A stretch of 29,080 bases of DNA. Source: Chrysochromulina parva. Its lineage: Eukaryota; Haptophyta; Prymnesiales; Chrysochromulinaceae. Numbering within the stretch: the first letter of the stretch is position 1; each line of letters starts with the position of its first letter. Position numbers and translations under genes: made by a program. The stretch is from NCBI GenBank assembly GCA_002887195.1, contig PJAB01000348.1, positions 1 to 29,080 on the forward strand. Direction: 5' to 3'. The notes below the pieces were generated by a model. That model searched no databases and had not been told where the DNA came from. It was given only the letters and a program-made list of their open reading frames with translations. Shown piece after piece: positions 98-26,292 of this stretch.

Positions 98-146
98 TTA
101 CCGGGGCGTGTGATGGTTGCATCTGCCGCCGCCGCGACTGCGTGCG

Positions 147-8132: not shown

Positions 8133-8149
8133 TGGGGACCGTATTCCCA

Positions 8150-8530: not shown

Positions 8531-8718
8531 CCGCCGCCGCTTGTGTCGCCGCCGTAGTCGCAGCGATCGTCCGGTTCGTTGTCCTCGGCCTCGCTGTTGG
8601 GTGGTGACGGTGGCGCGCTCGGTGGCCCCGTCGGCTCTCGCGGTGGTCGCGGCGTACTCGGTTGGGTCGGCGAGGGTGTGCACGTTCCGATGGTGCCGTC
8701 GTTCGAAGATGGACACAA

Positions 8719-9197
8719 CCTGCAACAGTTTAGGTTAGTCCAAGGGGGTTAGTCCGGTCACACCCATTCGGGTTTTTTGGAAATGAGCCCTACATGAACC
8801 ATCATGTCCGCGGCGCTCGACTTGCTGCGGTGCGTCAATGCTGGCCCCGCAGCGGCTCGCCACGCTCGCGCGGCTTCTCTAGCGCCCGGGCGACCGTATC
8901 CGCGGACCGCGGGCTCGTACACAGCCGGGTTCGCAGCACGACTTACTACGTCAGTTTTTTAGGGTTGTACACACTACACTCGACTTGTTGACACTTGTCC
9001 AAGTACCAAGAGGCTCTCACGTCTCAGTCTCACGCCCCCCGCGGCGCTCGCAGCAGAAAAGTTGATTTGGTGCACTCTCAGCCTCTTTGAGCCGCTCGCC
9101 TCTCGGCAGTGTGAAAGGGATCTTATATTCGAACCTTATCTGGGATGCACTGCTGCGCTGCTCAATGTCCAATGTGCATTTGTGCGCGTGGCGGCGC
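8719..9197. other. Non-coding: retrotransposon 5' side and 3' flank of the UPF0598 gene
   Basis: No gene is supported here. Just upstream of the retrotransposon frame (minus strand) lies ACTAACCTAAACTGTTGCAG followed by GT, a good-looking branch point plus 3' splice site. The octamer GTTAGTCC occurs twice on the plus strand near 8734-8756. The rest shows nothing recognisable. Confidence 0.5.
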
Positions 9198-10079: not shown

Positions 10080-10326
10080 AGAAAGTGTCAAGCAAGACAA
10101 GTCAGGGGGTGTGAAAGTCTGTCAGTCAGTTTCGTCGAGGAAGTCAAGAGGCTTGCGTGGTTTCTCGGGTTTCGGCGTCAGCCGCGTGGTAAAAAGGTAG
10201 ATTAATTCCAACGGTCAAGTTCAGTCAACGGTTCCAAAACTGCCGCCGGGAAAATCCTTCCAGGGTACAACAGGTGCTCGGAAACGCTCACGTGGTGCAC
10301 GCCGCCCTCCATCCTCGGCCTAAGCA
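10080..10326. promoter_or_regulatory. Shared divergent promoter region, UPF0598 and endosulfine genes
   Basis: The 247 bp between two outward-facing start codons must hold both 5' leaders and promoters. No TATA box or other defined element was recognised. The call rests on gene arrangement only. Confidence 0.4.
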
Positions 10327-11009: not shown

Positions 11010-12636
11010 TCAACTTCTCCGCGACCAGTCGCACTGACGGCTCTCCCAGGCCTGCAGCTCGTCGAGCGGGAGAGCGTCCAGCTGCGGGTAGACTGCAGGC
11101 GAGGCGGCTGCAAGCCGCGCGGCCAGCGCCGCCGAGGCCACGTCGTGCGCAACGTCGGCGGCATCCTCGAGGGCGTCGGCCGCTTCATGCATCGCCACGC
11201 GTAATGACGCGAGCAGTCGCCGGCGGCTCAGCCGAAGGCGCACGAGTAAGGCGCCCCGCTCCGAGAGTGTATCTCGGGCGAGCTCGGAGAGTTTGTCGCG
11301 AGAGCAGCTCTCGAGCAGGCGTTCATCCGCGCGGATGCCGGCCTCCTCTGCGTCCCTGTCGGAAGCCCCGCCCCCCCATAAGGCCTCTTCGATGGCCGCG
11401 GCGACGCGAGCGATGGCGCGCGCCGCGGCCGCCTCGCCTCCGACCGAGCTCCCCGCCAGAAGCACCTCGAGCGCACGGAACAGCGCCGTGTCGGGCGCCG
11501 TCGCGCGCAGCGCGAACGGTTCGCTCGGCGCCTTGCCGTTGAGGACCTCGTGCCCAGCCAGAGCTTCCACAGCCGCCTCCCAGCCCGCCTGCGGCGATTG
11601 GCCTCGCAGCTCCGCCGGCGTCACGGCGAGCACGTCGGAGATCGTCACCTCGATTTCGTCAAAGGGAGAGGGCTGCGGCACGAAGCCGTAGTAGAGCGCA
11701 AAGTGCGCATTCGTGTGCTCGCCGTATGTGATGGTCACCGGCTCACCGGCGCGCAGCGGCTGGGCCGCATGCAACCGAATCGTAGGCTCGCCGTTGCGCG
11801 CGATTCCGAAGGCGTACCTGACGTCACAGGCGATCAGAGGCGCTCAGGATTGAACCTGGAGGCACTCAGACGCAATCACGAGGGTGCACATGGCGGAGGG
11901 GATGCTCTCATGATTGGCAATGTCATCAGACGCACTCAGACGCAATCACGAGGGCATACATGGCGGAGGGGATGCTCTCATGATTGGCAATGTCAAGCAG
12001 CGGCACAAGCAGCCGGCGCACGCCGTGCTCGCGCGTGGTGAGGCGCAGGCAGCGACTCCATACGAGCTCGAGCGCATCGCGGAACTCGTTCGCCGATGGG
12101 AACGTGGCCATCAGCTTGTCGTCTTCGTCCGCTGCCTCCGCTGCCTCCGCAGCCTCGCGTGCGAGCCAGTATTGCTCGTCGAGCCAGAAGAAGGCCTCGC
12201 CGGCCTTTTGCGCGACGCTCGGATCGCTCGCGAGCGCGAGCTCCTCGGCGTCGCAGCGGATGGGCAGCGCGGGGGGTGTCACGGGCCAGCTCGCAATGAA
12301 GGGGTCCTCGGGATCAACGCGCCTTCGCTCCAGCACTGCGAGGGCGAGCTGCACATTCCATGGCAGTTGCGACGTCCAGCGCGGAGCAGCCCCGGGCAGC
12401 CGCGGCGTGGTCTCATCGCTGCCGTCAACGTCTGAGATGGTGAGGGCGAGCGGCACCTCCAGCAGCACATCTCCAACTCTGGCGTCCACATTGGCGACAA
12501 GGCCACGCAGACCGTGGTCGTCCACCGCACGTACCAAGCTGCCGCCGCCGTGGTTGCAGACCCAGGTGACCAGTGCTGTGTTGACCTCGACGTGGCCGAT
12601 TCTTGGATAGAGGTTCAGGAGCAGGAGCGCCAACAT
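11010..12636 (-). CDS. SET-domain protein, SETD3/SETD6/Rubisco-LSMT type
   Basis: Two exons, 12636-11960 and 11817-11010, give 494 residues. The split SET domain typical of this class is visible: near the N-terminus TWVCNHGGG, then GLRGLVANVDARVGDVLLEV (residues about 42-61); then LVPLLDIANHE (210-220, the conserved DxxNH box); then after the splice ITYGEHTNAHFALYYGFVPQ (255-274, the SYGxxxN...YGF post-SET box). The C-terminal ~200 Ala-rich residues fit the Rubisco-LSMT substrate-binding domain. Such enzymes methylate Lys (or His, as SETD3 on actin) in non-histone proteins; the substrate here is unknown. The splice restores ATG-TAC-GCC across the junction exactly where the SET motif demands continuity. 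Divergent from the DHHC gene. Confidence 0.87.
11818..11959 (-). other. Intron of SET gene with flanking direct repeat
   Basis: 142 bp, GT-AG. Intron begins GTATGCC and the downstream exon begins GTACGCC. Inside the intron lies a second copy of the last exon bases. The intron ends GCCTGTGACGTCAG. Phase and SET motif both support the boundaries. Confidence 0.88.
11862..11994 (-). repeat. 63-bp direct duplication across the exon-intron border of the SET gene
   Basis: Copies at 11862-11924 (wholly intronic) and 11932-11994 (exon end plus intron start), offset 70 bp, nearly identical except around the donor GTATGCC, which is GTGCACC in the intronic copy. Confidence 0.95.
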
Positions 12637-12803
12637 CCCGCTCCAAGTTACAGCGCCCCCCTCACTGCTCGCGCCGTTGCGGGGCCCCTCACGAGGCGGC
12701 GGCGGCCAAAAGGCGCCATTTTTGAACTTGACTTGACTTGATTTCTTGACTTACGCGTCTCTTTTCATGTGTGGCTTTGGCAGAAGCGCACAGAACCGAG
12801 AAC
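12637..12803. promoter_or_regulatory. Divergent promoter region, SET and DHHC genes
   Basis: The 167 bp between two outward-facing start codons. It contains a CTTGA-rich stretch near 12725-12752 (AACTTGACTTGACTTGA then TTCTTGACTTA), the only AT-richer block. Promoter role is inferred from arrangement. Confidence 0.4.
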
Positions 12804-13787
12804 ATGGAACGAGAAGCGCCTGCGGACTTGAAGCCTGCCGATGTCATCCCACACGCCGAGTCCGCCGCGCCAGTGGACATGAGGCCTATAGAGATAACCA
12901 CACACGAGGCCGCACCGTGTCGTTGCTCGCCGTGCAACGGTGGGCGCGCGGCTGCCGCACCGACACCTCTGATCGTGCTGGGCCTCATCGGCTTGAACTA
13001 CATCCCGCTCGTGCTCTTCTTGCTCGACCAGCAACTCGACGGCGGCCGCGTGGTTTCGATCGTGTTCTTCCACCTATTCCTGATACTGCTGCTGCTCGCC
13101 TACTTCATGGCGATGTGCACCGACCCGGGCGTGCCACCAGTTGAATGGCAGCGGAAGATGCAGCAAGCGGCGGCACGCGGCGAGAGCGTGCAGGTGTGCC
13201 GGCGCTCCGGGCTGTACAAGCCGCCGCGCTCCCACTACGATTCAGTCACCGAGCGGCTGACGCTCAACATGGATCACTTCTGCCCTTGGGTCGTCAACAC
13301 CGTCGGGTTTTACAATCGGAAGTTCTTCATCCTTTTCCTCGTCTACACGAACCTGACGCTGCTCGTGGCGGTGGTGACGCTCTTCTCGCAGGCGTGGAGT
13401 GCCTGGGACTGGCTACAGGACGCCTCCGGCGCGCAGCGGCGCTGGTTTTCTCCCGGCATCGTCAACACCGTCATCTACGTCGCCGCGATCGTGATCGATG
13501 TGGTGCTGCTGTGCATGCTGATCCCGTTCATGCAGTTCCACCTGCGTATGGCGGCGCGCAACGAAACGACGATCGAGGGGTACACGAACTCCAAGTATGA
13601 CGTCGGCGCCCGAGGCAACCTGCAATCCGTCTTCGGTCGCGAGCTCTGGACGTGGCCGTTACCTCTGTACTTTCACGGGCCGGACGGCGACGGCTTGCAT
13701 TGGCCCACGACAGACAGCCTGAGGGAGAGCCGCACAGTGGTGCCGCGCGCGACGAGCACACTGCCAGTACGCAGTAGCGCCGCCTAG
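12804..13787 (+). CDS. DHHC-type protein S-acyltransferase with degenerate zinc finger
   Basis: A 327-residue multi-pass membrane protein. Hydrophobic segments lie at about 55-75, 83-103, 174-192 and 222-243, two on each side of a cytosolic Cys-containing loop, as in DHHC palmitoyltransferases. The active-site box reads MDHFCPWVVNTVGFYNRKFF (from 156), so the nucleophile Cys is kept although DHHC has become DHFC. After TM4 come NETTIE (TTxE box) and NLQSVFG (PaCCT-like box), both family hallmarks. Most zinc-ligand Cys/His residues of the normal finger are missing: only the first Cys of the CxxC pair remains (VCRRSG), and the HHC box reads HYD. Start: the frame is open upstream only to a GTG, so the ATG at 12804 is used. 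Intronless. It would attach fatty acids to Cys of membrane-associated proteins. Confidence 0.9.
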   Translation: MEREAPADLKPADVIPHAESAAPVDMRPIEITTHEAAPCRCSPCNGGRAAAAPTPLIVLGLIGLNYIPLVLFLLDQQLDGGRVVSIVFFHLFLILLLLAYFMAMCTDPGVPPVEWQRKMQQAAARGESVQVCRRSGLYKPPRSHYDSVTERLTLNMDHFCPWVVNTVGFYNRKFFILFLVYTNLTLLVAVVTLFSQAWSAWDWLQDASGAQRRWFSPGIVNTVIYVAAIVIDVVLLCMLIPFMQFHLRMAARNETTIEGYTNSKYDVGARGNLQSVFGRELWTWPLPLYFHGPDGDGLHWPTTDSLRESRTVVPRATSTLPVRSSAA

Positions 13788-13803
13788 CCTGCCGGGCTAG
13801 GCG
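13781..13803 (+). other. Perfect 9-bp stem-loop overlapping the DHHC stop codon
   Basis: CGCCTAGCC, loop TGCCG, then GGCTAGGCG. The TAG stop lies in the left arm. It could form a stable RNA hairpin at the end of the message. Confidence 0.8.
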
Positions 13804-13956
13804 TTCACAAATAGCCCTCGCGAAGCTCGCGTATACATTGTATACATGTATGTGCGCTCTCTCTGAGCCAATCTGATGATGAGAAGGCCGAAATCCAGGA
13901 CGTAGACACATGGGCATGCGAACCTAATAGTGGTTCCCGAGTGCTATTCACTGTGA
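13788..13956. other. Short intergenic region between DHHC and TTLL genes
   Basis: Holds the right arm of the stop-codon hairpin and a palindromic AT-rich block, GTATACATTGTATACATGTA at 13831-13850. It must contain the 3' end of the DHHC gene and the promoter of the TTLL gene. Confidence 0.5.
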
Positions 13957-16386
13957 ATGGACGGCTCCGCTCGCCTGCTTTCGCAGCCGGTGGTCACGAC
14001 CGTAGTGCGCCGCCATCGGATGCCTGCGCTGGGTGGTGGCGCGGCTGCGGAGGAGGATGCGGACGGCGCACTTGTGGTGAGGGTCGGCGAGGGCTCGCCA
14101 CCGCTCATGCTGGAGGTCTGGGAAGGCAAGGGCTACCGCGAGTATGACGAGGAGAAAGCAGACGGCAAATGGGACGTCTATTGGAAAGGGTGCCGCTTCT
14201 GTGCGTCTGAGTACAAGCAGGCCACCCCGCAGCAGCGAATCAACCACTTCCAGAAAACGTCGGAGATCACCAAGAAGGATGCGCTGCTGCGCAACCTGCG
14301 CCGCATGAAGGCCATCCACGGCGCCGTCTACGCCTTCTCTCCTGAGACGTATATCCTTCCGACCGAGTGGACGACGCTCGTGCGCCGCGTGGAGAGCATG
14401 CCCGTGGCGGAGCGGCCGATCTGGATCCTCAAGCCGACCGACTCGAGCCAGGGGCGCAAGATCTTCATCATCCGCGATCTGGCCGAGATCTCGTACGGCC
14501 ACTTCTCGGCTTCGATGTTGAGCGACGAGCGGCCGGCGAGCGACCCAGATCGCGACCCGAAGCTGGATGACAAGGGGCGTGCGATCGCGACGGAGCTGGA
14601 CATGTCCACCACGCTCAAGATGCTCAAGTCGCGCCTCAACAAGACCGTGACGCCCTGCGTCAAGTTCACAGAGATGCACGTGGTGCAGCGCTACATCGAA
14701 CGACCTCTCTGTTTTCGAGGGTTCAAGCTCGACCTGCGGATCTACGTGCTGCTGCTCTCGGCGCAGCCGCTGCGCGTGTACTGGTTCTGCGACGGGCTCG
14801 TGCGCTTCGCCACGCAGACGTACAATCTTGCCAATCTCGATAACTCGTACGCTCACCTCACCAACTGCTCCATCAACAAGCACTCGAGCGTCGGCGCGGC
14901 TGGCTGTAAGTGCCCTGATGGCCTCTGATTGCATCCCTCATCAGGCCAAGCACTCGAGCGTCGGCGCGGCTGGCTGTAAGTGGTCTATGAGGCGCTGACG
15001 GGCGCTGATGGGCGTTGATTGCGGCGCGGCTGGCTAGTCCATGAGGCGCTGATAGCGCTGATTGCCTCCCTCATCAGGTAAGTGGTCGATGAGGCGTTTC
15101 CTGTCAGAGCACCCGGATCACCCGCTCAACTCGGCGCTTCTATGGACGCGCATCCGCGCCATCGTCAACCTCACGATGCTCTCGATTGCGCCGTCCATCA
15201 CGGACAATGGAGGCTGCTTCGAGCTGCTCGGCTTCGATGTGATGATCGACGAGCAGTCCAAGCCGTGGCTGCTCGAGGTCCATTGCCCTGATGGCCTCTG
15301 ATTGCATCCCTCATCAGTCCAAGCCGTGGCTGCTCGAGGTCAATTGCCCTGATGGCCTCTGATTGCACCCCTCATCAGGTCAATTGCTCGCCCGCGCTCG
15401 GCGTCGACTGCGCCGAAGACCGCGTGGTGAAAGAGCCACTGCTGAGCGATCTCGCTGATCTCCTCGCGCTCCAACGGCTCCAGCAGGGCTTCAGCTCTTC
15501 CACCCCGCGCGCTGCCGCCTCGCTGCCCGCCGGCGCCGGCGCGCGTGCGGCACGCAGTACACGCCGGCCGTTGGGGGCGCTCAGCACGGCGCCGGCGGCG
15601 GCGGAGGAGGACGCCGTACTGAGCGATCGGCGGCGCGCGGCGGCGGCGGCCGAGAGGGTGACGAACCTTCCCGAGCGCCTTCCCGAGCGCGTCGGCGGCT
15701 ACCAACTGATCTTTCCCTTCAGCCCCATCACGCGCCGCATTGGGCACAGCCTCGCGGGGCAGGAAGGCATTGTCGTGGCGGAGGTGAAGGCCGACCTGCA
15801 GCGCGCGGCCGAGTGCGCGGCGGCGCCATCGACGGCTGCTCAGGGCGACGCGTGGACCTCAGTCGACGTGATGGCGCTGCCGACGGGTACGTCAATGCCC
15901 AGTATGGCGCTTCCGACGGGTGGGTTGCCCAGTATGGCGCTGCCGACGGGTGCGCCGCCCCGGCCGCAGTCTGGGAAGGCAAGAGCCAGCACCAGCAGCG
16001 CGAGCAGCACCAGCACCAGAACCAGCTGCAACAGAACCAGCAGCAGCAGCAGCAGTACCAGCAGCAGCAGCAGCAGCAGCAGCAGCGCCAGCACCAGCAC
16101 CAGCACCAGCGCCAGCATGAATAGCGCTGTGAAGGAAGCGCATCGCCTCGTTGATGAGGCCGCCAGTCACATCGCGAGTCTCAAGACGATCCTGGACCAC
16201 GGCTCGTTACCCCCACTGCCCGATTCATTGGACGCGGAACCGCAGCATGACGACCCGACGAGCGCCGTGATGAGCGTCGCGGAGCGGCAGGATGACGACC
16301 CAAATAAGGATGACGACCCAAAGGCGGCGAAGAAGAAGCATGCCAGCGCCGTGATGAGCGTCAGCAGCACCAGCAGCACCACCAGA

Positions 16387-16431
<45 letters not shown>

Positions 16432-16731
16432 TCACCGGCGGCGCTCATCGCGGCGCTCGGCGCGAGCCGCGCAACGGAAGTCGCCTCTGGCCGTGTGGAG
16501 ATGCAACGAGATGCAACGAGATGCGACGAGATGCGACGAGATGCGACTACTAGCTTGCTCGTCGATCGTGCCAAACTTCGCGCCACGGAGCGCCATGATG
16601 AGCGCCTTGCCGCAGAGGGGCGCCACACCGCTGATGGGCTTCGTCATCGGGCGGGCTCGAGCAGTCCCAACGACTTCCAGAAAGCCTTGGCGGAGTATAA
16701 GCGGCAAAATCGAGGCACTAGTCGCAGTTGA
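13957..16731 (+). CDS. Tubulin-tyrosine-ligase-like protein (TTLL), probable polyglutamylase
   Basis: Three exons, 13957-14905, 15078-15277 and 15379-16731, give 833 residues. The TTL ATP-grasp domain is clear: WILKPTDSSQGRKIFII (ATP-binding Lys159 region), VQRYIERPLCFRGFKLDLRI, LDNSYAHLTNCSINKH, KWSMRRFL, and GGCFELLGFDVMIDEQSKPW continuing as LLEVNCSPALGVD, the metal-binding end. It looks closest to TTLL2/TTLL9-like glutamylases, which add glutamate chains to tubulin tails of axonemes and cytoplasmic microtubules. Both introns are placed by this conservation and phase. The C-terminal ~440 residues are low complexity: three MALPTG repeats, Ser/Thr run from CAG repeats, poly-Gly, and two SAVMSV units. 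The end NDFQKALAEYKRQNRG looks natural. Repeat-derived parts of exon 3 could in reality be unspliced intron. Confidence 0.88.
14906..15077 (+). other. TTLL intron 1, repeat-built
   Basis: 172 bp. Begins GTAAGTG, and the next exon begins GTAAGTGG. It contains a 35-bp copy of the preceding exon end (14948-14982 versus 14878-14912), a later partial copy, and the 3' module CTGATTGCCTCCCTCATCAG. Splicing joins codons TGT-AAG-TGG, keeping the TTL motif. Confidence 0.9.
14915..14944 (+). repeat. 30-bp intron cassette, copy 1
   Basis: Starts CTGATGGCCTCTGATTGCA and ends TCCCTCATCAG. The six-base ends CTGATG and CATCAG are inverted repeats. Other copies at 15288-15317 and 15349-15378 differ by at most one base. 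Confidence 0.95.
15288..15317 (+). repeat. 30-bp intron cassette, copy 2
   Basis: Identical to the copy at 14915-14944. It follows GTCCATTGC, i.e. exon-derived sequence. Confidence 0.95.
15349..15378 (+). repeat. 30-bp intron cassette, copy 3
   Basis: One T-to-C difference from the other two. Its final CAG is the acceptor of intron 2. Confidence 0.95.
15876..15958 (+). repeat. MALPTG coding repeat in TTLL exon 3
   Basis: ATGGCGCTGCCGACGGGT-like unit three times (one with TT for CTG change), giving MALPTG three times with short spacers. Confidence 0.85.
16029..16090 (+). repeat. CAG/AGC trinucleotide repeat in TTLL exon 3
   Basis: Near-perfect AGC repeat with a few interruptions, translated as a Ser/Thr run in the TTLL frame. 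Confidence 0.95.
16386..16432 (+). repeat. GGC microsatellite (poly-Gly) in TTLL exon 3
   Basis: About 15 uninterrupted GGC triplets. Confidence 0.95.
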
Positions 16732-17377
16732 AGCCCTCCGCACACCAGGCCACTTGTTTTGGCTTGCCTTGACACTTGCCACGCAGTAAGGCCACAGGGA
16801 CGCAGTAAGGCCACAGGGACGCATGACGCATCTGGCATGTTGCATGAGTGGCATGTAGAGTGTCTAGCTATACGTCGCGTGGTTCCCACGCCGAGCGCCG
16901 TGATGAGCGTCGTGATGAGCGCCGTGATGAGCGTCGCGTGGTTCCCACGCCGAGCGCCGTCCCGCGTCCCGGGTCGCGCGGTTCTGGCCGGTTACGTTTA
17001 GGCATGTCGGTTGTCGCATTAATGGAGTTACGAACGAACGAACGGAAAAGCATCCCGTCGATGCGCGCTTCGCGGCGCCGACATCCGACCGATCGTGCCA
17101 TCCGACAAGCGAGCCTCCCGTGTGGGTCGGACGTCAGGTGTGTCGTCTGTCGTGTGCCTCGAGCGCGCGAGCCACAGCCACCGCGCCCGGTTGGAGACAG
17201 CCGCGTATCGACTGGCATATACGTTTTTTAGCGCCGCGGTCGAGTCATCTACCGAAAAAAACACGCACCTGTGTGTATGCCGTGCGTGCAGCTGCATCGC
17301 ACTCGTGGGACACGGATGGGCAAGGTGCGCCTCCATCGGTCTTAACGTACGCGAGAACGTACACAGTGGTTCGGTCG
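16732..17377. other. Convergent intergenic region with minisatellite
   Basis: Lies between the TTLL stop (plus) and RBM8A stop (minus). A 19-bp unit with GTAAGGCCACAGGGACGCA occurs twice near 16786-16823. A 29-bp repeat containing GCGTGGTTCCCACGCCGAGC lies at 16873-16901 and 16932-16960. AGCGCCGTGATGAGCGTC occurs at 16894-16911 and 16918-16935 and also inside the TTLL exon. No gene recognised from 16961 to 17377. Confidence 0.6.
16873..16960. repeat. 29-bp direct repeats flanking a GATGAGCG minisatellite
   Basis: Two identical 29-bp copies, offset 59 bp, separated by GATGAGCG(T/C)C(G) units. The arrangement (duplicated flank around short repeats) copies that of the introns, but no coding sequence was recognised here. 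Confidence 0.9.
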
Positions 17378-17932
17378 CTAGCGCCGACTGGCGCCGCCAT
17401 GGCGCGACGGGCCCGCGCGGAACGCCCAATCGACATGAATCGGCTGGCCCATGATGACGGCGCCATCCATCTCGTCGATGGCGCCCTGCGCCTCGCTCTG
17501 GTTCGCATACTCGATGAGCGCGTAGCCCTTGACGAAGCCCGTCCGCCGGTCGAGGTTGAGGTGAAGGTTGCGGATGTCGCCAAAGTCGGCGAACTTATCG
17601 TGTACGTCCTCCTCCTGGGCCTCCTCATGAACCCCAGTCACAAAGATGATCCAGCCTTCGACCGACTTGAGCGGTCCGCGCGTGCTGCCCTTGGATTGGA
17701 TCGACTCGAATTGCTGGTCTGACCCTGTCATTGTGGTTGCTGACGAGCCCATGGCGCCACGACCCTTGACGCACCGGCCCGCGGCATCGGTCGCCTTGGC
17801 CTTGCCTCCCGCAGGAGCTCCGCCACTGCTGCTGCTTCCTGCGGCTTCTGTGGATGCCGCTCTGGCCGCTGCGGACGTCGGCTCGTCTGCCGGCAGATCT
17901 ATCTGCTCGTCAAAGTCAACCTCTTCAGCCAT
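17378..17932 (-). CDS. RBM8A: RNA-binding protein Y14/RBM8A, exon junction complex core
   Basis: A 184-residue protein with one RRM. RNP2 is WIIFVTGV (about 94-101) and RNP1 is GFVKGYALIEY (132-142). The flanking stretches HEEAQEEDVHDKFADFGDIR, HLNLDRRTG and MGQPIHVDWAF match Y14 orthologues from plants to man nearly word for word. Y14 pairs with Mago in the exon junction complex, which is left about 24 nt upstream of spliced junctions and acts in mRNA export, localisation and decay. The N-terminus is acidic then Ala/Ser/Gly-rich; the C-terminus ends GPSRHGGASRR, basic as in orthologues. The ATG at 17932 (MAEEVDFDEQ) is chosen because the frame extends upstream only to a GTG. Intronless. Confidence 0.97.
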   Translation of the reverse strand: MAEEVDFDEQIDLPADEPTSAAARAASTEAAGSSSSGGAPAGGKAKATDAAGRCVKGRGAMGSSATTMTGSDQQFESIQSKGSTRGPLKSVEGWIIFVTGVHEEAQEEDVHDKFADFGDIRNLHLNLDRRTGFVKGYALIEYANQSEAQGAIDEMDGAVIMGQPIHVDWAFRAGPSRHGGASRR

Positions 17933-18221
17933 GAGCGCGATGTCCAATTTCACGCTGCTGCCCGCACGAGCGTCGTACTATTGTAAAGTGGCCCAGCACG
18001 GCGATGCGTCGCAGGCAGTTCACGCCGCGTCGGTGTGAATTTGATCCGCGCTGCACCGCACGCAGGCGAACGGGCCTGTCCCGCTCAAAAAGGGTAGCTG
18101 GTTTGGGGTCAGCCCACAATGGTCCAACATCCGCTGGTGCTCACGCCGCCGGCTTGCATTCAAGCAGCTCAGCCACCTTGTGATCGCGCATGCCTTCCAG
18201 ATTCCACCTTCACAACACTCC

Positions 18222-18965
18222 TCAAAAGCTCTTCGTATCACGCATCTCGCGCACGCCGCTCAACATCTTCTCCCGCAGCCGGTAGGTCCCCCTGAGGTGC
18301 TCTCGCACGTCGCGCATGTCGTGCAGCCTGCGCAGCAGTAGCAGCAGCTGGCCAAGCTCGCGATCGTCCCGGTCGCCGAAGAAGGGTAGGATGGGCACCG
18401 CATTGTCCGGCTGCAGCATGCACGAGGCCAAGTTGTCATCGACGAGCACCGTGCGCTCGAGCGGCCGCCCGAGCCGAGTCAAGTCCTTTGCGAGCGCGGC
18501 ACTGATTGGCGTGCAATGCTCGCGCCAAAGCAGTCGAGTACCGAAGAGCGCGCCGTCGGGGTCGAGGAGTGTGGCGCATTCGCGCACGTAGCCCTCGACG
18601 GCAGACGAGTAGAGCACGAGCTCGCACAGCTTGCTGGCCTCGCCCAGGAAGTCGTCGAGTAGAGGGCGCTTGTACACGCGGACGGGGAATTCAAGGTAGG
18701 GCAGCTCGAACTCGTGATCGGGCGCGGGCATCATGCGGCCGCGCCTCATCAGCTCTGCGTGGGCTGCCTTTGCACGCGCTGCCTCCGGCCCGACGGACTC
18801 CCGAAACCTCGGCGGATCCACATCGGCGTTCGTGGCATGGAGCAGGCAATCATCGACATCGAGGCAGACCGTGAGCTTCGGTAGTGGTGACGACGTCGAC
18901 GCGCTGAGCGGTGGCAGGAGACCGCTGGCGGACGTGGCGATCGCGCGGCGAAAGCGCGTCCGCAT
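18222..18965 (-). CDS. FCP1/SCP-like HAD phosphatase (NIF domain)
   Basis: A 247-residue protein with the FCP1/SCP (NLI-interacting factor) phosphatase fold. Motif I is LDVDDCLLH (residues 35-43), where the family norm is DxDx(T/V): both Asp are present but the next position is Cys. Then VYKRPLLDDFL, ELVLYSSAVEGYVRECATLL (the YTAxxxxYA-type box), and RTVLVDDNLASCMLQPDNAV with the motif III Asp pair, then FFGDRDDREL. The N-terminus MRTRFRRAIATSASG is basic and Ser/Ala-rich, compatible with an organelle presequence, which would suggest a Tim50-like place rather than nuclear CTD phosphatase; that is a guess. Intronless, same strand as RBM8A with about 290 bp between. Confidence 0.82.
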   Translation of the reverse strand: MRTRFRRAIATSASGLLPPLSASTSSPLPKLTVCLDVDDCLLHATNADVDPPRFRESVGPEAARAKAAHAELMRRGRMMPAPDHEFELPYLEFPVRVYKRPLLDDFLGEASKLCELVLYSSAVEGYVRECATLLDPDGALFGTRLLWREHCTPISAALAKDLTRLGRPLERTVLVDDNLASCMLQPDNAVPILPFFGDRDDRELGQLLLLLRRLHDMRDVREHLRGTYRLREKMLSGVREMRDTKSF

Positions 18966-19165
18966 CGTGTCCCTGTGAATGATTCACACACTGAGATGTA
19001 AGTTCCGAACTTTGTGCAGACACGGATTCTCTCGCACGCCCGGCTATTGCGGCCAATCGTCGTCCTCGACCATGAAACTCTCACTCAAAAATTCTCCAGC
19101 CGCTACATGCTTTATACGACTGTCTGCTTACATGCTTTATACTGCAGCTTTATACGACTGTCTGC
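18966..19165. other. Short intergenic region with 23-bp direct repeat
   Basis: Copies of a 23-bp sequence (CTTTATACGACTGTCTGCTT plus ACA) lie at 19110-19132 and 19148-19170. The second overlaps the stop codon of the UxaA-domain gene. Confidence 0.85.
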
Positions 19166-19376
19166 TTACAGGCTGCAGCCCCCTCCGCGCGGTATCTGGA
19201 AGTCCACATTGAGCGCGCTGTCGCGGTAGACGAGCGGCGTGTACTCCCCCGAGGCGAGCTCGCTCATCCTAATTAGGATCAGGCGCAGCCACTCGGAAGG
19301 CTCCCCTTCCACAGGCAGCACGATGTCTGCCACTGGCGCACCCGCCACTGCTCGTGCGCCGTCGTCGTCGGTCACG

Positions 19377-19414
<38 letters not shown>

Positions 19415-22400
19415 CTCGGCGGCCGCACGCGCCGTGTCGAGCGCCACGCTGAGCAGCGGAAGCAGGGGGTGGCCGGACGGCATGGGTGCGCCACGCGCAC
19501 ACCACGCGAGCGCCATGTGCACGCCGGTCCCTCCCACACCAGATAGGATCTCGACGAACCGCTGCGAGGGCGTCGCCATCACATGCAGCCCCCCGCCGCT
19601 GTGCGCCTCGGACGAGGGCGCGAACGCGCCGTCTTGAGCGCGCCGTCTTGGGCATGCGGCGAAGCTCAGCGTGGCACGCGCCGTCTCGGCGAGCGCGCCC
19701 TCGAGGAACGCCGTGTTGAGCAGTAACGGACTCCCCTCAGGGATCACCACGAGCCCTCGGCGCGCCATCAGGCTCGTCAGCTGCGCGAAGACGAGCGCCA
19801 CCCGATCGGGCAGCAGCGCCGTCGTGGGCGTATGAGCGCCGTCGTGAGCATGGGCGGGCGCCGCGCCGTCGTGGGCGCCGCCGCCGCCGCCCTCGAACGC
19901 ACTCGGTGGCGCGCCGTCGTGAGCACTCGGCGCCGCGCCGTCGTGAGCACTGGGCGGCGCGACGAGCAGCGCGACGCCCAGGCGCAGCAGCTCCGCGTCG
20001 ACCCGTGCCGGCGCCGTCGTGGGCACGCGGCTACGGAAGAAGGCTGCGACCTTGGCCCGTGCAGCCGCGATGCCGCCGTCGGCCTGGAGCGAGGCCCATC
20101 CGAAGGTAATGAGGGAGGCAATCAGCATGCACTCAGAGGCCATCAGCATGCAATCAGAGGTGATCAGGTCACCTGGAGCGAGGCCCATCCGAAGGCCTGC
20201 CGATCAGCGCCGTCGGCCTCGATCAGGCTCGCGAAGTAATCGTTGTGCGTCTTCTCGCACCTGCTCGAGCGCGCAGGGTGGCATTCACAGGTGGCATTTC
20301 ACAGGTGGCATTCACAGGTGAAATTCACAGGTGGCATTTCACAGGTGACACTCCGGCGGCACTCAAGGGTCAGACACTCAAGGGACAGTCACTCAAGAGG
20401 CACTCACAGGTGACACCCACTCCGGCGCAGAGTCCATCGCACTCGCACACAGGCGCCGTCCCGAGCGCGCACCCGTGCTCGAGGAGGAGCGCATGCGCGA
20501 CGAGCGGCGAGCGCAGGTGGCCCAAGAGGGTGATGGCGCCCAAGCGCTCGTCTGAGAGGCCGCAGCCCTCTGTGTGGGGGAGCGCGACGAAACGCACCGG
20601 CGGCGAGCTCGCAATCTCGGAAGATTTCTCGGAGGGCGTGTACTCCTCTTGCAGCGCCGCCGCGAGCGATCTCGCAATCTCGGAGGAGCACAAGCTTGTG
20701 GGGAGGATCAACGCCACCGACTCTGTAGGGGGCGGCATCATCTCGTCGAGGGGATGGCGCACGCTCAACACGACGCTCGAAGCCGTGCCCAACACGACGC
20801 TCGAAGCCGTGCCCAACATGACGCTCGAAGCCGTGCCCCCGTGCGTCTCCGTGCTGGCCGTGCTCGTCACCGAGCTGGCCGCGCGGCTCAACACGGCGCC
20901 GTCGGAGGCTGGGGCACCCGTCGCCGCCGAGAGATCATCCGAGATTGCAATCTCCGTGTGCGCGGCTGGGCGTGCGAGGCCCTTGTACAAGGGCGGAGCG
21001 GCGAGCACGGCAGAGGCCGAGGCAGTTAGGTTGGCTAGTTGGAGGGGAGGGCAGGCCCATGAGCCCAGAGGTCCACTCACCTGATGAGGGAGGCAATCAG
21101 CATGCACTCAGGGAGGGCAGGCCCATGAGGTCCACTCACCTGATGAGGGAGGCAATCAGCATGCACTCAGGGAGGTCCACTCACCGCGCCCGCAGGCGCC
21201 GTCCCGAGCAGCGGCGAAGAAGCGAAGCCGTTGTACCTGATGAGGGAGGCAATCAGACGTCATCAAAGGTTCATCAGTGCCAATCATCCCAAGTGGAGTT
21301 GTACCTGATGAGGGAGGCACCCAGAGGCAATCAGAGGTCATCTACGTACTGCGAGTCACGCTCGGTAGTCGCCCTCTGAACGGCCGCCAAGTTTGGATCA
21401 ATCTCCCAATTGCGCCAGATCTGGAGCTGGTATTGGCCTGCGGTTTCGCCACGTGTTCGCAGCCCCGAGGCTACGGCCAGCGTTTGTTGGAAGAGGTGCT
21501 CGGCGCGCTCGGACGCGCTTAGGGTGGGGTTGGCCGCGTCCACGTCCATGTCCTTCGCCATGAGCTGGTACCTGATGAGGGAGGCCATCAGAAGTCATCA
21601 GGGGTCATCAGAGGTCATCAGGAGAGATCCGCCATGAAGGCGCACCTGATGACGGGGGCCATCGGAGGCCATCAGGGGATGAGGGAGGTCATCAGAGGCC
21701 ATCCGGTACCCTGATGAGGGAGGCCATCAGAGGCCATCAGAGACGATGAGAGGCGCTCCGAGGCAAAGAGGGCCAACTGATAGCACTCAATAGCACTCAA
21801 TAGCAATCAGATCCAATAGCCAACTGATAGCACTCAATCGCACTCAATAGCACTCATTAGCACTCAATAGCACTCATTAGCACTCAATAGCACTCATTAG
21901 CACTCAATAGCACTCATTAGGCCAATAGCACTCATTAGGCCAACTGATAGCACTCAATAGCACTCGATCGCAATCAATAGCCATCAGAGGCCATCGGAGG
22001 CCATCAGTGGTCCTCACCGGCGCGAGGTGACCTGATGACGATGATCATCACAGGTCATCAGAGGTCATCAGAGGCCCTCAGTGGTCCTCACCGGCGCGAG
22101 GTGGAGACGATCTTGATGGTCGGCACGAAGGGGAAGTTAGTGATGGAGCCGTTGCCCGTCGTGAAGTAGATGACGTTACAGCCGGTAGCCACTTGGCCGG
22201 CGATGGACTCGAGATCGTTACCTGAGGAGTCCACGAAGCAGTTGCGATCGATGGCAATCGATGGCCATCAACGGCCATCAAAGGCCATCAAGGGAGATCG
22301 ACTCGAGATCGTCACCTGGCGAGTCCATGAAGCAGTAGCCCGCCCCCAAAGTCCCCGCGCCGTGCCGGGCGTCGCCCTCGGCAGGGACTGCCTCGGGGAC

Positions 22401-24683
22401 TGCCCGTGGTGGCGGCAGCGGCTCGCCGTACCTGCAATCAGATGCAATCAGATGCAATCAGACGCGATGAGATGCAATCAAAAGGTCATCAGAGGCATCA
22501 TCAGAGAGATCATCAGAGGCGTCATCAGAGGCGTCATCAGGAGGCGATTCGCGTACTCGACCACGTGCTCCAGCCGGCACTCAGATGCAATCAGATGCAA
22601 TCAGATGCAATCAGAAGGCCATCAGCGCGTACTCGACCACGTGCTCCAGCCGGCACTCAGGATGCCTTTTCATCGCCGCCCCGAGGGACTTGAGGGCAAT
22701 GTTGTAGAGCCCGCGGAACAGGTTGCCGCCTGAAGGATTTCCCTCCGCCGAGGCACCGTGCGCGTTCGCGTAGTTGTGGAAGCGGCCGACGAGATCGACG
22801 AAGCGCCGCGCGGTGTGATAGTCGCGCACCGACTGGAGGACGTACTGCTCGGCCCCGATGAGCTCGTCAGTTTCGGCGAGGACCTGCATGCAGGGCCATC
22901 AGTCGCAATCAGCCGCAATCAGTCGCAATCAGCCAGTCATCAAGATTCGCAACCAGCCCGGCTCTCCGCACGAGGGGTTCGTCAGTTTCGGCGCGCACCG
23001 CCGCGCCTCCCGCCTCGATGAGCAGTTTGGATGCCGCCGCGACGAGCGGGTTAGCCGCGGTGCCTACAATACGAAATGGTGTCCACCAGATTGCAATCAG
23101 CCGCAATCAGTCGCACTCAGCCGCACTCAGCCAGAAGGTGCCGATCATATTGCAATCAGTGGTCGTCCGAGGGCAATCTGAAGGCAATCTGAAGGCAATC
23201 TGAAGGCAATCAGAGGTCAATCAGAGGTCAATCAGAGGTGGATCAGAGGGCACTCAGAGGGCACTCAGAGGGCACTCAGAGGGCACTCAGAGGGCACTCA
23301 GAGGGCACTCAGAGGGCACTCAGAGGGCACTCAGAGGGCACTCAGAGGCAATCGGAGCGCAATCAATCGCAATCACCCGAGAAGGCATCCGAGCCACCGC
23401 ACTGCTGCGCGACGATGAGCGACGAGGCGGCGCATGGTACCCTAGCCATGGCACGCAGTGGCGGCAGCAGCGACGTGGCCGTGCTCGCCGCAGCGCTCAG
23501 TTCGGCGCCGAAATCACGCAGGCGGAGCCGGAGCACGGTGGGGCTGAGGGCCGCGAGGTCCTTGGCGCGTCCGGCGGTGGCGGCTGCGGCGACGAGCCTC
23601 TCGTACGAGAGTCCCGCGCCTGCCTTCGCCGCGGCCACGTCAGCGTCAGTTTCGAGCACGAGCGCGGCGCCCACGTTTGGATGAAGGAGGAGGCCGAGGA
23701 GCGTGCGTACCTGATGAGGATGGTCATCAGAGGTCATCAGAGGTCATCAGTGATCATCAGAGGTCATCAGTGGTCATCAGTGGCTCGAGGAGGAGGCCGA
23801 GGAGCGTGCATACCTGGGAGAGGCCCTCGGTCGTCATGTGTGAAGACCCTTCGCAAGTCATCAGAGGTCATCAGAGGTCATCAGACGTCATCAGACCCTT
23901 CGCAATTCATTGCAATCCATCGCACCCACGCAATCCATCGCAATCAAGGTGGATTCGAAATCCATCGCAATCAAGGTGGCGCACCAGGAGGGTTTGGTTT
24001 CGCGCCGCGCTCGCGTTCGCGCTGCCGCCATCCTCAGTGTGAGGCAGCGCGACGGCGCCGTCGAGACCGCCGTGCGGCTCCTCGCGCGCGGCTGGCGCCA
24101 CGCGTCGCTCGAGCGCGCGCGCGAACGCGTTGCTGCGCGACGAGAGCGGCAGGATCACGAGGTAGTTGCGCGTGCCGACACCGCGGCTCGCGGGCGCGCG
24201 CACGAAGCCATCGAAGGTGGCGTCGAGGCGGTGGAGCGGCACGGGCGGGCCGGGGACGAAGCTCGCCTCGCTGAGCGCTGCCGGCTTCACGTAGTCGGCG
24301 AAGTTGGGCGTGAAGCCCGGCTCGAGGCCGCGCGGTAGCAGTGCGGCGATCACCTTGGCATTGCGCAGCCACTCGCCGGGCGCGATGGGCCGCAAGGCCT
24401 TGCCAAAGGGCTCGCCCCACGAGGTGATGAGCTCGCCGAGGGCGATGGGCGCCACGGCGAAGCGGTGGCCCTCGAGCACGCGCGCGCTCAGCCGGATGGT
24501 CGTGCTCGCGTGGGAGATGAGCTGGCCCGCCTCGAGGTCCTCCTTGGCGATGGCGGCGTTGTCGAGCGGCGCAGGCAGCTGGGCGACGGTGTCAAAGGCG
24601 AGCGGAACGGCCGAGGGCGGCGGCGTGAGAGCGGAAGCCGGGGTCGACGATCTTGGCTCCTCGTACGCGAGTTTGATCGGCAT
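19166..24683 (-). CDS. Tandem UxaA-domain sugar-acid dehydratase (altronate/galactarate dehydratase family)
   Basis: Eleven exons: 24683-23985, 23710-23377, 23063-22999, 22883-22633, 22431-22316, 22221-22092, 21571-21350, 21236-21185, 21080-20473, 20260-20173, 20083-19166. Phases close at every junction, giving 1,160 residues. Residues about 40-115 are a SAF domain. Then comes a UxaA core: [13 protein letters not shown] (168-180), LPHTEDGG (213-220), [80 protein letters not shown] and [15 protein letters not shown] second, diverged UxaA-like part follows from about 744: [26 protein letters not shown] (790-798), [42 protein letters not shown], and [11 protein letters not shown] at the C-terminus. 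The family dehydrates hexarates/altronate with a metal. I recall long bacterial homologues of similar plan; substrate unknown. Confidence 0.86.
19380..19414. repeat. CCG microsatellite in UxaA-gene last exon
   Basis: About 11 CCG triplets, read as poly-Gly on the minus strand. Confidence 0.95.
20084..20172 (-). other. UxaA-gene intron 10
   Basis: 89 bp. Donor GTGACC. The acceptor CAG is the end of a 22-bp copy of the previous exon end (CTTCGGATGGGCCTCGCTCC plus AG). The joint gives [12 protein letters not shown]. Confidence 0.9.
20261..20472 (-). other. UxaA-gene intron 9
   Basis: 212 bp. Donor GTGCGCGC, next exon GTGCGAGA. Filled with CACCTGTGAATGC-type units. The joint gives [12 protein letters not shown]. 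Confidence 0.85.
20280..20365. repeat. Tandem CACAGGTGGCATTT units in intron 9
   Basis: About six imperfect copies of a 13- to 14-bp unit (TTCACAGGTGGCAT) on the plus strand. Confidence 0.9.
20765..20839. repeat. 24- to 25-bp coding repeat in UxaA-gene exon 9
   Basis: ACGACGCTCGAAGCCGTGCC-type unit three times, giving [12 protein letters not shown] repeats in the linker between the two UxaA-like parts. Confidence 0.9.
21081..21184 (-). other. UxaA-gene intron 8
   Basis: 104 bp, two tandem ~59-bp units, each ending CTGATTGCCTCCCTCATCAG. Intron start and next exon share GTGAGTGGACCTC exactly. Confidence 0.9.
21237..21349 (-). other. UxaA-gene intron 7
   Basis: 113 bp. Donor GTACGTAG, next exon GTACAACG. 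A second CATCAG-GTACAAC pair lies inside. Ends with CTGATTGCCTCCCTCATCAG. Confidence 0.85.
21572..22091 (-). other. UxaA-gene intron 6, longest, array-filled
   Basis: 520 bp. Starts GTGAGGACC and ends GGCCTCCCTCATCAG before GTACCAG. It contains a second copy of the exon end plus donor (ACCTCGCGCCGGTGAGGACC) and long arrays of ~10-bp units. Direct flanking repeat is only GT. The joint gives [12 protein letters not shown]. Confidence 0.85.
21775..21970. repeat. Array of AATAGCACTC / ATTAGCACTC units
   Basis: About 15 or more imperfect 10- to 11-bp units (plus strand) in intron 6 of the UxaA gene. Confidence 0.95.
22222..22315 (-). other. UxaA-gene intron 5
   Basis: 94 bp. Intron start and next exon start share a 20-base block with two differences (GTRACGATCTCGAGTCSATC). 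The end copies the exon end, GTGGACTCCTCAG versus ATGGACTCGCCAG. The joint gives DSPGNDLESI. Confidence 0.92.
22432..22632 (-). other. UxaA-gene intron 4
   Basis: 201 bp. Donor GTACGCG and next exon GTACGGCG. A 28-bp copy of the exon end (CTGGAGCACGTGGTCGAGTA region) sits inside, followed by CTGATGACG and CTGATTGCAT repeats. The joint gives [10 protein letters not shown]. Confidence 0.9.
22884..22998 (-). other. UxaA-gene intron 3
   Basis: 115 bp. Its first 20 bases match the next exon's first 20 except for two bases (both end CGCCGAAACTGACGA). The joint gives [18 protein letters not shown]. Confidence 0.9.
23064..23376 (-). other. UxaA-gene intron 2, with 11-bp minisatellite
   Basis: 313 bp, donor GTGATTGCG, acceptor TTTCGTATTGTAG. 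The only intron here with a TAG acceptor and no obvious flanking repeat. Filled with CTGATTGC-like units and nine 11-bp units. The joint gives [15 protein letters not shown]. Confidence 0.85.
23248..23350. repeat. Nine tandem copies of an 11-bp unit
   Basis: Unit GGGCACTCAGA (plus strand), perfect across copies, inside intron 2 of the UxaA-domain gene. Confidence 0.97.
23711..23984 (-). other. UxaA-gene intron 1
   Basis: 274 bp. Starts GTGCGC; next exon starts GTACGC. Inside, after CTCTCCCAG, is a copy of the next exon's first ~24 bases (GTATGCACGCTCCTCGG...), then CTGATGACC repeats and the end CATCCTCATCAG. The joint gives [19 protein letters not shown] donor elsewhere in 23905-23985 cannot be fully excluded. 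Confidence 0.75.
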
Positions 24684-24715
24684 GTCGCGACAAGGGGTCC
24701 GCACAGTTGGTCCGC
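24684..24715. promoter_or_regulatory. 32-bp gap between two divergent start codons
   Basis: The UxaA-domain gene starts leftward at 24683 and the next gene rightward at 24716. Unless one true start is further inside, the two 5' leaders must overlap. No promoter motif was recognised. Confidence 0.45.
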
Positions 24716-26292
24716 ATGGAAGAATGTCGTGACGAAATCGACGACATCGAAGTTCGCAACACCGATTTTCAATGGCTCTCCACTTTCGTCTCAACGCTCC
24801 GGTCAATGCCACCTTCCTCCGGCTACTCCGGCACGGGCTCCGGCTCCGGCTTCAGCCACGACTCAGGCGCGTCGGGCGACGAGGATGCACCGCCGTGGGC
24901 GACTCCTCGGTCATCCGCGCGCTCGGCGCCTCGCCCGGCGGCCGCTGCCGTCGCGGCTCCGCCACCGAAGACAGCGCCCGGCCCACCGGCCGCACCCGCG
25001 CCTCCTGATTCACCGTCAGCGTATAGCGGGTACAGCGAGTACAGCGGGTACAGCGGGTACAGTGACCGCAGCGTGGAGCCCTCGCCGCAGAAGCCAGCAG
25101 CCGCTGCCGCCAAGGCAGCGCCGTGGACGGAGCCATCGCCGCAGAAGCCTGCGCCGCCGCGCCCGCCGCGCCCGCCCGAGGGCGCGCCGGCGCCGCTGCC
25201 GGCGGACGCGTACACGGACCGTGGCTACTCGGAGTGCTCGGACTACGAGAGCCAGCAGCTCGCGTACGAGGAGCGTGCCATCAACTGGGAAGAGGAGATG
25301 CTCGAGGCACAGGCGGAGGCGCAGGTGCGGGCCGAGGAGGCGTGCTGATGGAGAGTGCTGATGGGTCACTACTGGCCATCAGAGGTGCTGATGGAGTGCC
25401 TCTGATGGTCATCACCGAGTGCCACCGAGTGCCCGAGATGGCGCCCGTGATGGCTCTCACTCGCACACTAATTCACACACACACACTCACTCTCCCTCTC
25501 TCCAACGCGCAGGCGCGTGCTGATGAAGAACTCATCGAGGAGCGCATCGCCGACGCGAAGAACCTCTTCAGCCACAGCAAGCTGGGCGCTGTCCTGGGCG
25601 GCGCCCCATCTCCGCTGGCCTTTAAGGCCGCCCAAGACAGCGCCTTTAGGGCCGGGCAGAGTGCATCCGCCGCGGTGCCGCCCAGGACAGCGCCCATGAT
25701 GGAGGCGGTGGAGGCAACGGACGCGAAGGTGCTCGGCACGGCGCCGCCACAAGCAGCCGGCGCGGCGGCGAAGATGCTCAGTACGGCGCCTCCACAGACG
25801 ACGTTCACAGGCCCTCGCACCGCGAGTGCCACGAGCGCCGTACCGGGCGGATCGGCTGCATCGGAGCACGCGGCGGCGGCGGCCAAGGGCAATCCGACCA
25901 GCAAGCTCCCCCCGAGCGCCGTACCGGGCGGGTCCGACGACGAGTACGAGTACGAGGACGAGTACGAGGAGGACTCGGAGGACGGGTCGCCGGCGCCAGC
26001 CGCCAAGGGCGCGGCATCACTCACAGCAGTGCCCAAGACGGCGCCGCCGCCAGCCGCCAAGGGCGCGGCATCACTCACAGCAGTGCCCAAGACGGCGCCG
26101 GCGCCAGCCGCCAAGGGCGCGGCATCACTCACGACATCGAGTGGAGTGGCCCAACGGGGAGCGACCGTGCCCACGACGGCGCCTGACGCCGCGCCCTCGT
26201 CTGCTCGAAACTCCGACTCCGACTACGACGAGTACTCGGACTCGTACTCGGACTCCGCCCGCGACGACGCGGACAGCGAGCGGGCAATGATG

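What the first reader, a model, noticed from the sequence alone, without database searches (positions are those of the whole stretch)
11818..25512. Introns flanked by direct repeats of exon sequence: introner-like elements or intron gain by duplication
Fourteen introns were rebuilt in four genes, using protein motifs and phase. In about 12, the first bases of the intron repeat the start of the next exon: GTAAGTG, GTCMATTGC, GTAYGCC, GTGAGTGGACCTC, GTRACGATCTCGAGTCSATC and others, 4 to 20 bp; in intron 10 of the UxaA gene the copy is of the upstream exon end. So one splice site is exon-derived and the other comes with the inserted DNA. This is the signature expected of introner elements with target-site duplication (known in Micromonas and Aureococcus) or of intron gain by tandem duplication. 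That nearly every intron of a 20-kb stretch shows it implies massive, recent gain.
Basis: partly seen in the sequence, partly recalled or inferred. Interest (0 to 1): 0.9.

Follow-up and report, generated by a model that had tools for sequence, protein, structure and literature searches.

The report
Retroposon-like elements that become introns
In this genome, probably that of a haptophyte alga, hundreds of copies of a short repeated piece of DNA, most of those sampled lying between two copies of the same stretch of neighbouring sequence, are likely mobile elements that turn into new introns where they insert, which would matter because how genomes gain introns is still poorly known.

Summary
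Of the 14 introns, 12 hold a copy of adjoining exon sequence above chance (11 strong, 1 weak); the narrower pattern (intron start = next exon start) holds in 7. Homologous proteins support 11 of 14 junctions. Most intron bodies belong to one dispersed family: arrays of ~10-bp units, often ending in CTGATNRCCTCHCTCATCAG, which has 824 exact copies in 45 Mb (reversed control 0), 526 followed by GT and 126 by GC. Of 67 GT-followed clusters sampled, 51 carry a copy of the downstream sequence on the element's other side (null 17/804). Single-unit copies are 8-41 bp long, median 20, longer than the 3-9 bp reported for transposon introners. The 3' end is fixed, the 5' end ragged. I read this as retroposon-like introner insertion with long, variable target-site duplications: the upstream copy gives the donor, the element (or the downstream copy) the acceptor. 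Tandem duplication of units looks secondary. Splicing and the enzyme are untested. The family is clustered: 200 kb from 20 large contigs hold 5 arrays, the window 15.

The parts
11818..11959 (-). Intron of a SET-domain-like gene (GT..CAG), with 36-nt copy of the upstream exon end and start copy GTAYGCCYTCG
   Evidence: reading frame only, SET naming by eye (no Pfam match)
14906..15077 (+). TTL intron 1: 7-nt start copy, inner 19-nt copy of next exon start, 29-nt copy of upstream exon end; ends CTGATTGCCTCCCTCATCAG
   Evidence: 7 residues fewer than relatives just upstream
15278..15378 (+). TTL intron 2: lies in a tandem repeat of 61-bp units; start copy GTCMATTGC
23711..23984 (-). UxaA intron 1; inner 26-nt copy of next exon start
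23064..23376 (-). UxaA intron 2; 11-bp array, no exon copy (counter-example)
22884..22998 (-). UxaA intron 3; 28-nt diverged copy of next exon start
22432..22632 (-). UxaA intron 4; 28-nt copy of upstream exon end inside
22222..22315 (-). UxaA intron 5; ~47-nt duplication across the junction: copy of next exon start at its 5' end and of upstream exon end at its 3' end
21572..22091 (-). UxaA intron 6; several arrays, 12-nt copy of upstream exon end
21237..21349 (-). UxaA intron 7; two units, weak 7-nt inner copy
   Evidence: frame only
21081..21184 (-). UxaA intron 8; two units, 13-nt start copy GTGAGTGGACCTC
20261..20472 (-). UxaA intron 9; no significant exon copy (counter-example)
20084..20172 (-). 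UxaA intron 10; perfect 23-nt copy of the upstream exon end forms its 3' end, donor comes with the insert
25340..25512 (+). GC-AG intron of the gene at 24.7-27.3 kb; copy of next exon start offset by 2 nt
   Evidence: frame only
15058..15077 (+). Exact copy of the 20-nt element terminus; three more on the minus strand at 21081-21100, 21140-21159, 21237-21256
   Evidence: 11 matches to CTGATTGCCTCCCTCATCAG with up to 3 mismatches, 0.01 expected
19166..24683 (-). UxaA (altronate dehydratase-like) gene that hosts ten of the introns
13957..16731 (+). Tubulin-tyrosine-ligase-like gene that hosts two introns

Best explanation
Most of these introns hold members of a dispersed family of short tandem-repeat elements lying between two direct copies of target sequence, and these elements are likely introners inserted by a retroposon-like, target-primed copying step that would duplicate some 8-47 bp of the target, so that the upstream target copy is predicted to supply the 5' splice site (GT or GC) and the element, or the downstream copy, the 3' splice site. 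Shown by sequence: the dispersed family, its shared 3' end (CTGATNRCCTCHCTCATCAG), its ragged 5' end, the flanking direct copies, the excess of GT and GC right behind the element, and the absence of the UxaA-1 to -6 and TTL introns from relatives. Inferred: that these sequences are spliced as drawn; that the repeated CTRAY-like sites serve as branch sites; that the step is RNA-mediated (the element ends exactly at a 3' splice site, as an excised intron RNA would, and is cut short towards its 5' end, as target-primed reverse transcription leaves it); that insertions which do not splice cleanly are removed by selection; and that the [copy + element] units multiply afterwards by slippage or unequal exchange between the direct copies, which could also delete an intron precisely.
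For: 824 exact copies of the 20-mer in 45 Mb, 0 of the reversed pattern, against 15 in the bacterial/archaeal genome collection (257 billion bases by the tool's description) and 1 in IMG/VR; by eye none of these 16 lies in an array. 526 are followed by GT and 126 by GC, 652 of 824. Direct copy score >=8 in 51 of 67 GT-followed clusters, 17 of 804 swapped pairs; score >=15 in 36 of 67, 0 of 804. In 39 single-unit insertions the copy is 8-41 bp plus one at the 45-bp cap, median 20, 17 perfect. Over all 60 copies before GT or GC, 27 perfect, 95% identity. Information at the 5' end <=0.21 bit per position. Independently of the end motif, 18 of 20 arrays found in 229 kb lie between direct repeats, 3-4 of 18-19 after swapping the right flank (by eye 11 of the 18 are unique sequence, 2 tandem units, 5 array-internal). 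The copy starts within -3..0 of the element's CAG in 31 of 69 clusters; 20 more match the whole CTCATCAG, which I read as tandem units. UxaA and TTL relatives on contigs of 37,670, 350,942, 392,696 and 490,650 bases have uninterrupted frames across these sites. CTRAY sites 77 against 46.9 +/- 5.2 shuffled.
Against: No transcript was available, so splicing is inferred. No partner retrotransposon was found: of five reverse-transcriptase matches, the two on contigs covered by the listing (C34, C103) have no copy of the 20-mer on the contig. 16 of 67 GT-followed and 8 of 17 GC-followed clusters show no copy of score >=8. In one search, 18 of 69 copies start elsewhere than the model predicts. The shared 3' end could partly reflect selection for a working branch site and acceptor, and the sample was drawn by it; the ragged 5' end could partly reflect array slippage. 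UxaA-10 carries its own donor, which a simple truncation model does not predict. UxaA-2 and UxaA-9 have no copy. The frame test is not discriminating: joined 34 of 45 open, unspliced 6 of 45, random joins 63%.
Confidence: 0.5

Rival explanations
1. Staggered double-strand breaks were filled in and joined around short templated DNA: fill-in makes the direct copies, and filler copied from other introns makes the body.
For: Variable duplication length, secondary internal repeats and nested events are what the Daphnia neointrons show (passages of PMC4202315); diverged copies as in UxaA-3 and UxaA-5.
Against: Filler would hardly end at the same 20 nt 824 times; in Daphnia the repeats shared with an adjacent exon are 4-12 bp, here median 20.
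Confidence: 0.2
2. Non-autonomous DNA transposons (MITE-like introners) with a target-site duplication, as in Micromonas, Aureococcus and Symbiodinium.
For: Dispersed short element, direct duplications, co-opted donor as in Symbiodinium family 1; short inverted CTGATG/CATCAG in some copies (by eye); MITE duplications of 10-15 bp are mentioned in PMC7789003.
Against: No conserved 5' end and duplications not of fixed length; introner duplications are given as 3-9 bp.
Confidence: 0.15
3. Intron gain by tandem duplication of exon segments that contain AG|GT, with later growth of a minisatellite in the spacer.
For: UxaA-5 and other duplications span the junction; tandem units of [exon copy + body] recur.
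Against: The terminus is shared to the base at hundreds of loci and the sampled bodies are not exon copies.
Confidence: 0.1
4. Minisatellites that arose inside old introns, the exon copies being chance or junction slippage.
For: 10-11-bp arrays are low in complexity, and UxaA-2 is an array intron without a copy.
Against: 51 of 67 against 17 of 804; introns absent from relatives.
Confidence: 0.04

Closest known systems
Introners of Chrysochromulina sp. TARA_PON_109_MAG_00232, family 5 (Gozashti et al. 2022, PMC9860276; results part 1 read, and a passage)
   Same: Haptophyte host (that Chrysochromulina is one is recalled; the window's TTL is 66% identical to Prymnesium parvum); duplications, no terminal inverted repeats.
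   Different: There 4-bp duplications, element carries the 5' splice site and co-opts the 3'; here 8-41 bp, mostly the reverse.
Introners of Symbiodinium microadriaticum, family 1 (same paper)
   Different: There 4-bp duplication and clear terminal inverted repeats; here neither.
Daphnia pulex neointrons from staggered breaks (PMC4202315, passages)
   Same: Exon repeats at opposite intron ends, internal repeats, nested events.
   Different: Repeats 4-12 bp, and no dispersed element family in the passages I saw.
Amoebophrya introners (PMC7789003, passages)
   Same: Repeated introns with direct repeats at exon boundaries.
   Different: There 3-5 nt direct repeats plus 8-20 nt inverted repeats, many with non-canonical sites; here GT/GC-AG and no conserved inverted repeats.
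Fungal introner-like elements attributed to reverse splicing (as described in PMC9860276 section 8)
   Same: RNA-level spread is a candidate for both.
   Different: Those lack duplications; these have long ones.
SINE/LINE-type retroposons (recalled, no call)
   Same: Fixed 3' end, ragged 5' end, variable target-site duplications.
   Different: No partner LINE with a matching tail found; body is a repeat array only.

Membership tests
Introner (PMC9860276 definition) | Many introns of one genome share sequence | tested here: met
   824 copies of the 20-mer, 652 of them before GT/GC; intron status of most is inferred
[quoted passage not shown]
   3' end yes; the 5' part of each intron is locus-specific copy, then ragged
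Introner (PMC9860276 definition) | Not a low-complexity family (manual filter, section 17) | tested here: not met
   10-11-bp repeat arrays; such families would probably have been filtered out of that survey
Introner (PMC9860276 definition) | Removed by splicing | not testable with these tools
   No RNA; homologues only
DNA-transposon (MITE) introner | Short duplication of near-constant length (3-9 bp) | tested here: not met
   8-41 bp in single units; 37 of 39 over 9 bp, though copies under score 8 were not counted
DNA-transposon (MITE) introner | Terminal inverted repeats | tested here: not met
   No conserved 5' end in 46 elements
Target-primed retroposon | Duplications of variable length | tested here: met
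Target-primed retroposon | Fixed 3' end, truncated 5' ends | tested here: met
   the sample was chosen by the 3' end
Target-primed retroposon | 3' tail shared with an autonomous element | tested here: inconclusive
   2 of 5 reverse-transcriptase contigs could be judged, neither has the 20-mer; 3' ends not obtained
Staggered-break repair intron (Daphnia type) | Exon repeat at the opposite intron end | tested here: met
Staggered-break repair intron (Daphnia type) | Repeat 4-12 bp, insert not a dispersed family | tested here: not met
Tandem genomic duplication intron | Intron wholly derived from the duplicated exon | tested here: not met
   Bodies (median 58 nt beyond the copy) are mostly the dispersed family
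Reverse-spliced introner-like element | No target-site duplication | tested here: not met

The most novel reading that the evidence does not exclude
Excised introns themselves are the retroposing RNA: a reverse transcriptase starts at the free 3' end of a spliced-out intron (...CTCATCAG), copies its branch-site array into a nicked exon, stops before the old donor, and the long target-site duplication makes a new donor each time. This would be an RNA-mediated class of introners that carries target-site duplications and is invisible to surveys that drop low-complexity introns.
Probability: 0.3. Interest if true: 0.9.

Novelty: new variant of a known kind. Interest (0 to 1): 0.7.

Why it matters
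Where new introns come from is a long-standing question. The survey of introners that I read puts most of them down to DNA transposition, gives duplications of 3-9 bp and removed low-complexity families by hand. A repeat-array element with long duplications and retroposon-like ends would be a different route, one that such a survey would probably miss, and its young copies (27 of 60 perfect) make insertion, splicing and precise loss testable by strain comparison.

Tried and rejected
Chance: rejected by swapped-pair nulls. Pure tandem duplication: rejected as the primary event, kept as a secondary one. General AG|GT direct repeats in the 200 kb from the 20 largest contigs: with left-maximal repeats AG|GT was 1 of 360 (1.1 expected) and AG|GC 7 (2.2 expected) (this test misses cases where the exon also ends in G); with anchored repeats AG|GT was 11 (4.2 expected, rank 21 of 256 classes) and AG|GC 17 (8.4 expected, rank 30), in few loci and mostly satellite-like by eye. 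So a modest excess, not a genome-wide rule. Open-frame test: not discriminating at 63% G+C. Window retrotransposon-like ORF as the driver: one other relative only (72%), and no copy of the 20-mer in window 1-2000. Virus and prokaryote matches: judged chance, no arrays by eye. One search tried a pattern that led nowhere. Naming the host by 18S rRNA failed because the search machine did not answer.

Rows dropped before counts: L001-L005, and L028 because it overlaps L010; 98 clusters, 94 with enough flank. The loci were not drawn at random: L026-L085 are GT-followed places from the list in contig order (not every listed place was fetched, and some regions also hold non-GT copies), L086-L105 are non-GT places; L006-L025 and the window, 6 of the 94 clusters, are independent of the motif. 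Copy length was capped at 45; values of 45 come mostly from tandem units. In one search, 45 of 60 were usable. In one search, 46 of 49 entered the information profile. In one search, 41 of 49 bodies were used (15-120 nt).
Full report
What was checked. The window is C348:1-29080 of an unnamed 45.07-Mb assembly in 2199 contigs; 200 kb taken from its 20 largest contigs have 63% G+C. I rebuilt the 14 introns (ten in UxaA, two in TTL, one in a SET-like gene, one at 25.3 kb). UxaA-1 to -6 fall at ungapped places in an alignment with 18 homologues, 17 at UxaA-6. TTL-2 does so with the full-length homologues; at TTL-1 the downstream side is conserved, but the window protein lacks 7 residues just upstream. 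UxaA-8 to -10 fit the sequence of P0001 by eye. SET, UxaA-7 and the 25.3-kb intron rest on frame alone.

The local pattern. 12 of the 14 introns hold a copy of adjoining exon sequence above the nulls. In seven it is at the intron start and repeats the next exon (one with a 2-nt offset); in seven there is a copy of the upstream exon end (some introns have both). UxaA-7's 7-nt copy is weak, and UxaA-2 and -9 have none. UxaA-5 joins the two forms: a ~47-nt stretch across the junction stands on both sides of the array, so that both splice sites come from the exon. UxaA-10 has a perfect 23-nt copy of the upstream exon end as its 3' end, and its donor comes with the insert. These are what one insertion with a target-site duplication gives, depending on where the duplicated stretch falls relative to the splice junction.

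The element. Most bodies are arrays of 10-11-bp units related to CTGATNRCCT, often closed by CTGATNRCCTCHCTCATCAG. That 20-mer has 824 exact copies in the assembly and none of its reversed control; a shorter form with GT, CCTCNCTCATCAGGT, has 969 and none. The bacterial and archaeal collection gives 15 and the viral collection 1, without arrays by eye. GT follows 526 copies and GC 126. Units and terminus contain CTRAY, the form of a branch site (the consensus is recalled); 41 bodies hold 77 such sites against 46.9 +/- 5.2 in shuffles, and 32 of 41 hold at least one.

Test beyond the window. From 98 clusters in the fetched loci and window I used the 94 with enough flank. Of 67 followed by GT, 51 have an upstream copy of the downstream sequence with score >=8 (null 17 of 804) and 36 with score >=15 (null 0 of 804). 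Of 27 not followed by GT, 13 do (null 33 of 324); 17 of the 27 are followed by GC and 9 of these have a copy. In 39 single-unit insertions the copy is 8-41 bp plus one at the 45-bp cap, median 20, 17 perfect; over all 60 copies before GT or GC 27 are perfect and identity is 95%. The score floor hides copies shorter than 8. A scan that ignores the end motif found 20 arrays in the 200 kb plus the window; 18 lie between direct repeats, against 3-4 of 18-19 when the right flank is swapped; by eye 11 of the 18 repeats are unique sequence, 2 tandem units and 5 array-internal. The copy starts within 3 bases of the element's CAG in 31 of 69 clusters, 20 more match the whole CTCATCAG (tandem units, as I read them), and 18 start elsewhere.

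Ends. Directly behind the upstream copy the sequence carries at most 0.21 bit per position over 20 positions; the 20-mer at the other end is fixed because the sample was drawn by it, and the 20 positions before it carry up to 1.0 bit. So the 3' end is defined and the 5' end is not. This speaks against terminal inverted repeats and for copying that starts at the 3' end, but array slippage could blur the 5' end too.

History. The UxaA protein falls in a clade with P0001-P0009, apart from the other 29 rows of the tree, whose named members are bacterial (100/100). P0006 and P0009, on contigs of 37,670 and 350,942 bases, run uninterrupted across UxaA introns 1 to 6, and P0001 (76% identical) is one frame of 1040 residues on a 3807-base contig whose source (DNA or cDNA) is unknown. 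For TTL, P0132 and P0134 on contigs of 392,696 and 490,650 bases are uninterrupted at both sites, while P0121 (96% identical over 76% of the query, 81 member sequences) ends by reading into TTL intron 1 at the same place, so that the intron is present in a close relative. A named relative, Prymnesium parvum at 66%, makes a prymnesiophyte haptophyte likely.

How it most likely works. An RNA ending at a 3' splice site, possibly an excised intron, is likely reverse-transcribed into a nicked exon. Staggered nicks would leave the 8-47-bp duplications; the upstream copy's GT or GC becomes the donor and the element's branch-site-like array and CAG the rest. Insertions that do not splice cleanly would be lost, which would explain why 79% of termini stand before GT or GC. 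Later, exchange between the direct copies would multiply units (five in a row in L035) or delete the intron. Splicing, the RNA step and the enzyme are inferred. Two of five contigs with reverse transcriptase could be judged for a copy of the 20-mer and neither has one.

Against a wider claim. In the 200 kb from the largest contigs only 5 arrays occur, against 15 in the window. Direct repeats at AG|GT in general are modestly over-represented there: 11 against 4.2 expected, rank 21 of 256 classes, in four loci, and 1 against 1.1 in the stricter test. The window is a dense spot; 'nearly every intron' does not extend to the genome on this evidence.

Known and new. Of Gozashti et al. (PMC9860276) I read the outline, results part 1, sections 8, 17 and 23, and passages: 3-9-bp duplications, a filter against low-complexity families, and a Chrysochromulina family with 4-bp duplications and the opposite splice-site use. 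Daphnia (PMC4202315, passages) has 4-12-bp exon repeats; Amoebophrya (PMC7789003, passages) 3-5 nt with inverted repeats. Rogers and Bendich (PMC11782384, outline and abstract) report repeats of 4-30 bp, mean 11.4, near the borders of each of 213 introns of all classes, so that long repeats near introns have been proposed before. PMC12768974 and PMC12730881 were seen in passages only and do not describe this form there. Six searches listed up to 20 titles each; among those I saw no report of array-type introners with long variable duplications. Only open-licence papers are held.

Noticed in passing
window 649-8748 (-): A 2699-residue open frame that by eye resembles a non-LTR retrotransposon (endonuclease- and reverse-transcriptase-like motifs); no Pfam match; its 3' 2 kb have one other relative in the assembly at 72%.
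   Followed up: partly
window 19166-24683 (-): Altronate-dehydratase-like gene in a likely alga; the named homologues listed are bacterial, the nearest (unnamed) sequences form their own clade: possible old transfer from bacteria.
   Followed up: partly
L035, L034, L037, L048, window 15254-15378 and 21063-21175: Tandem multiplication of whole [exon copy + element] units inside one intron, each unit with its own donor- and acceptor-like ends.
   Followed up: partly
window 23169-23365: An 11-bp array of 18 copies inside UxaA intron 2, an array intron with TAG acceptor and no exon copy.
   Followed up: no
L092 and L096: Elements with 24- and 18-nt duplications that begin with GA and CC: possible GA-AG introns or unspliced insertions.
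   Followed up: no
L012 2869-3001 and its reverse strand: Tandem 66-bp units of the same kind with TAATGAC arrays and TGACAG ends, hinting at a second element type.
   Followed up: no
window 15986-16431: Long CAG-type and GGC repeats coding for Ser/Thr/Gly runs in the TTL gene's last exon.
   Followed up: no
window 9198-10121, 12750-13787, 17378-17977, 18222-18983: Open frames with DUF4505, DHHC, RRM and NIF-phosphatase domains, next to the intron-dense genes and without array introns that I saw.
   Followed up: no
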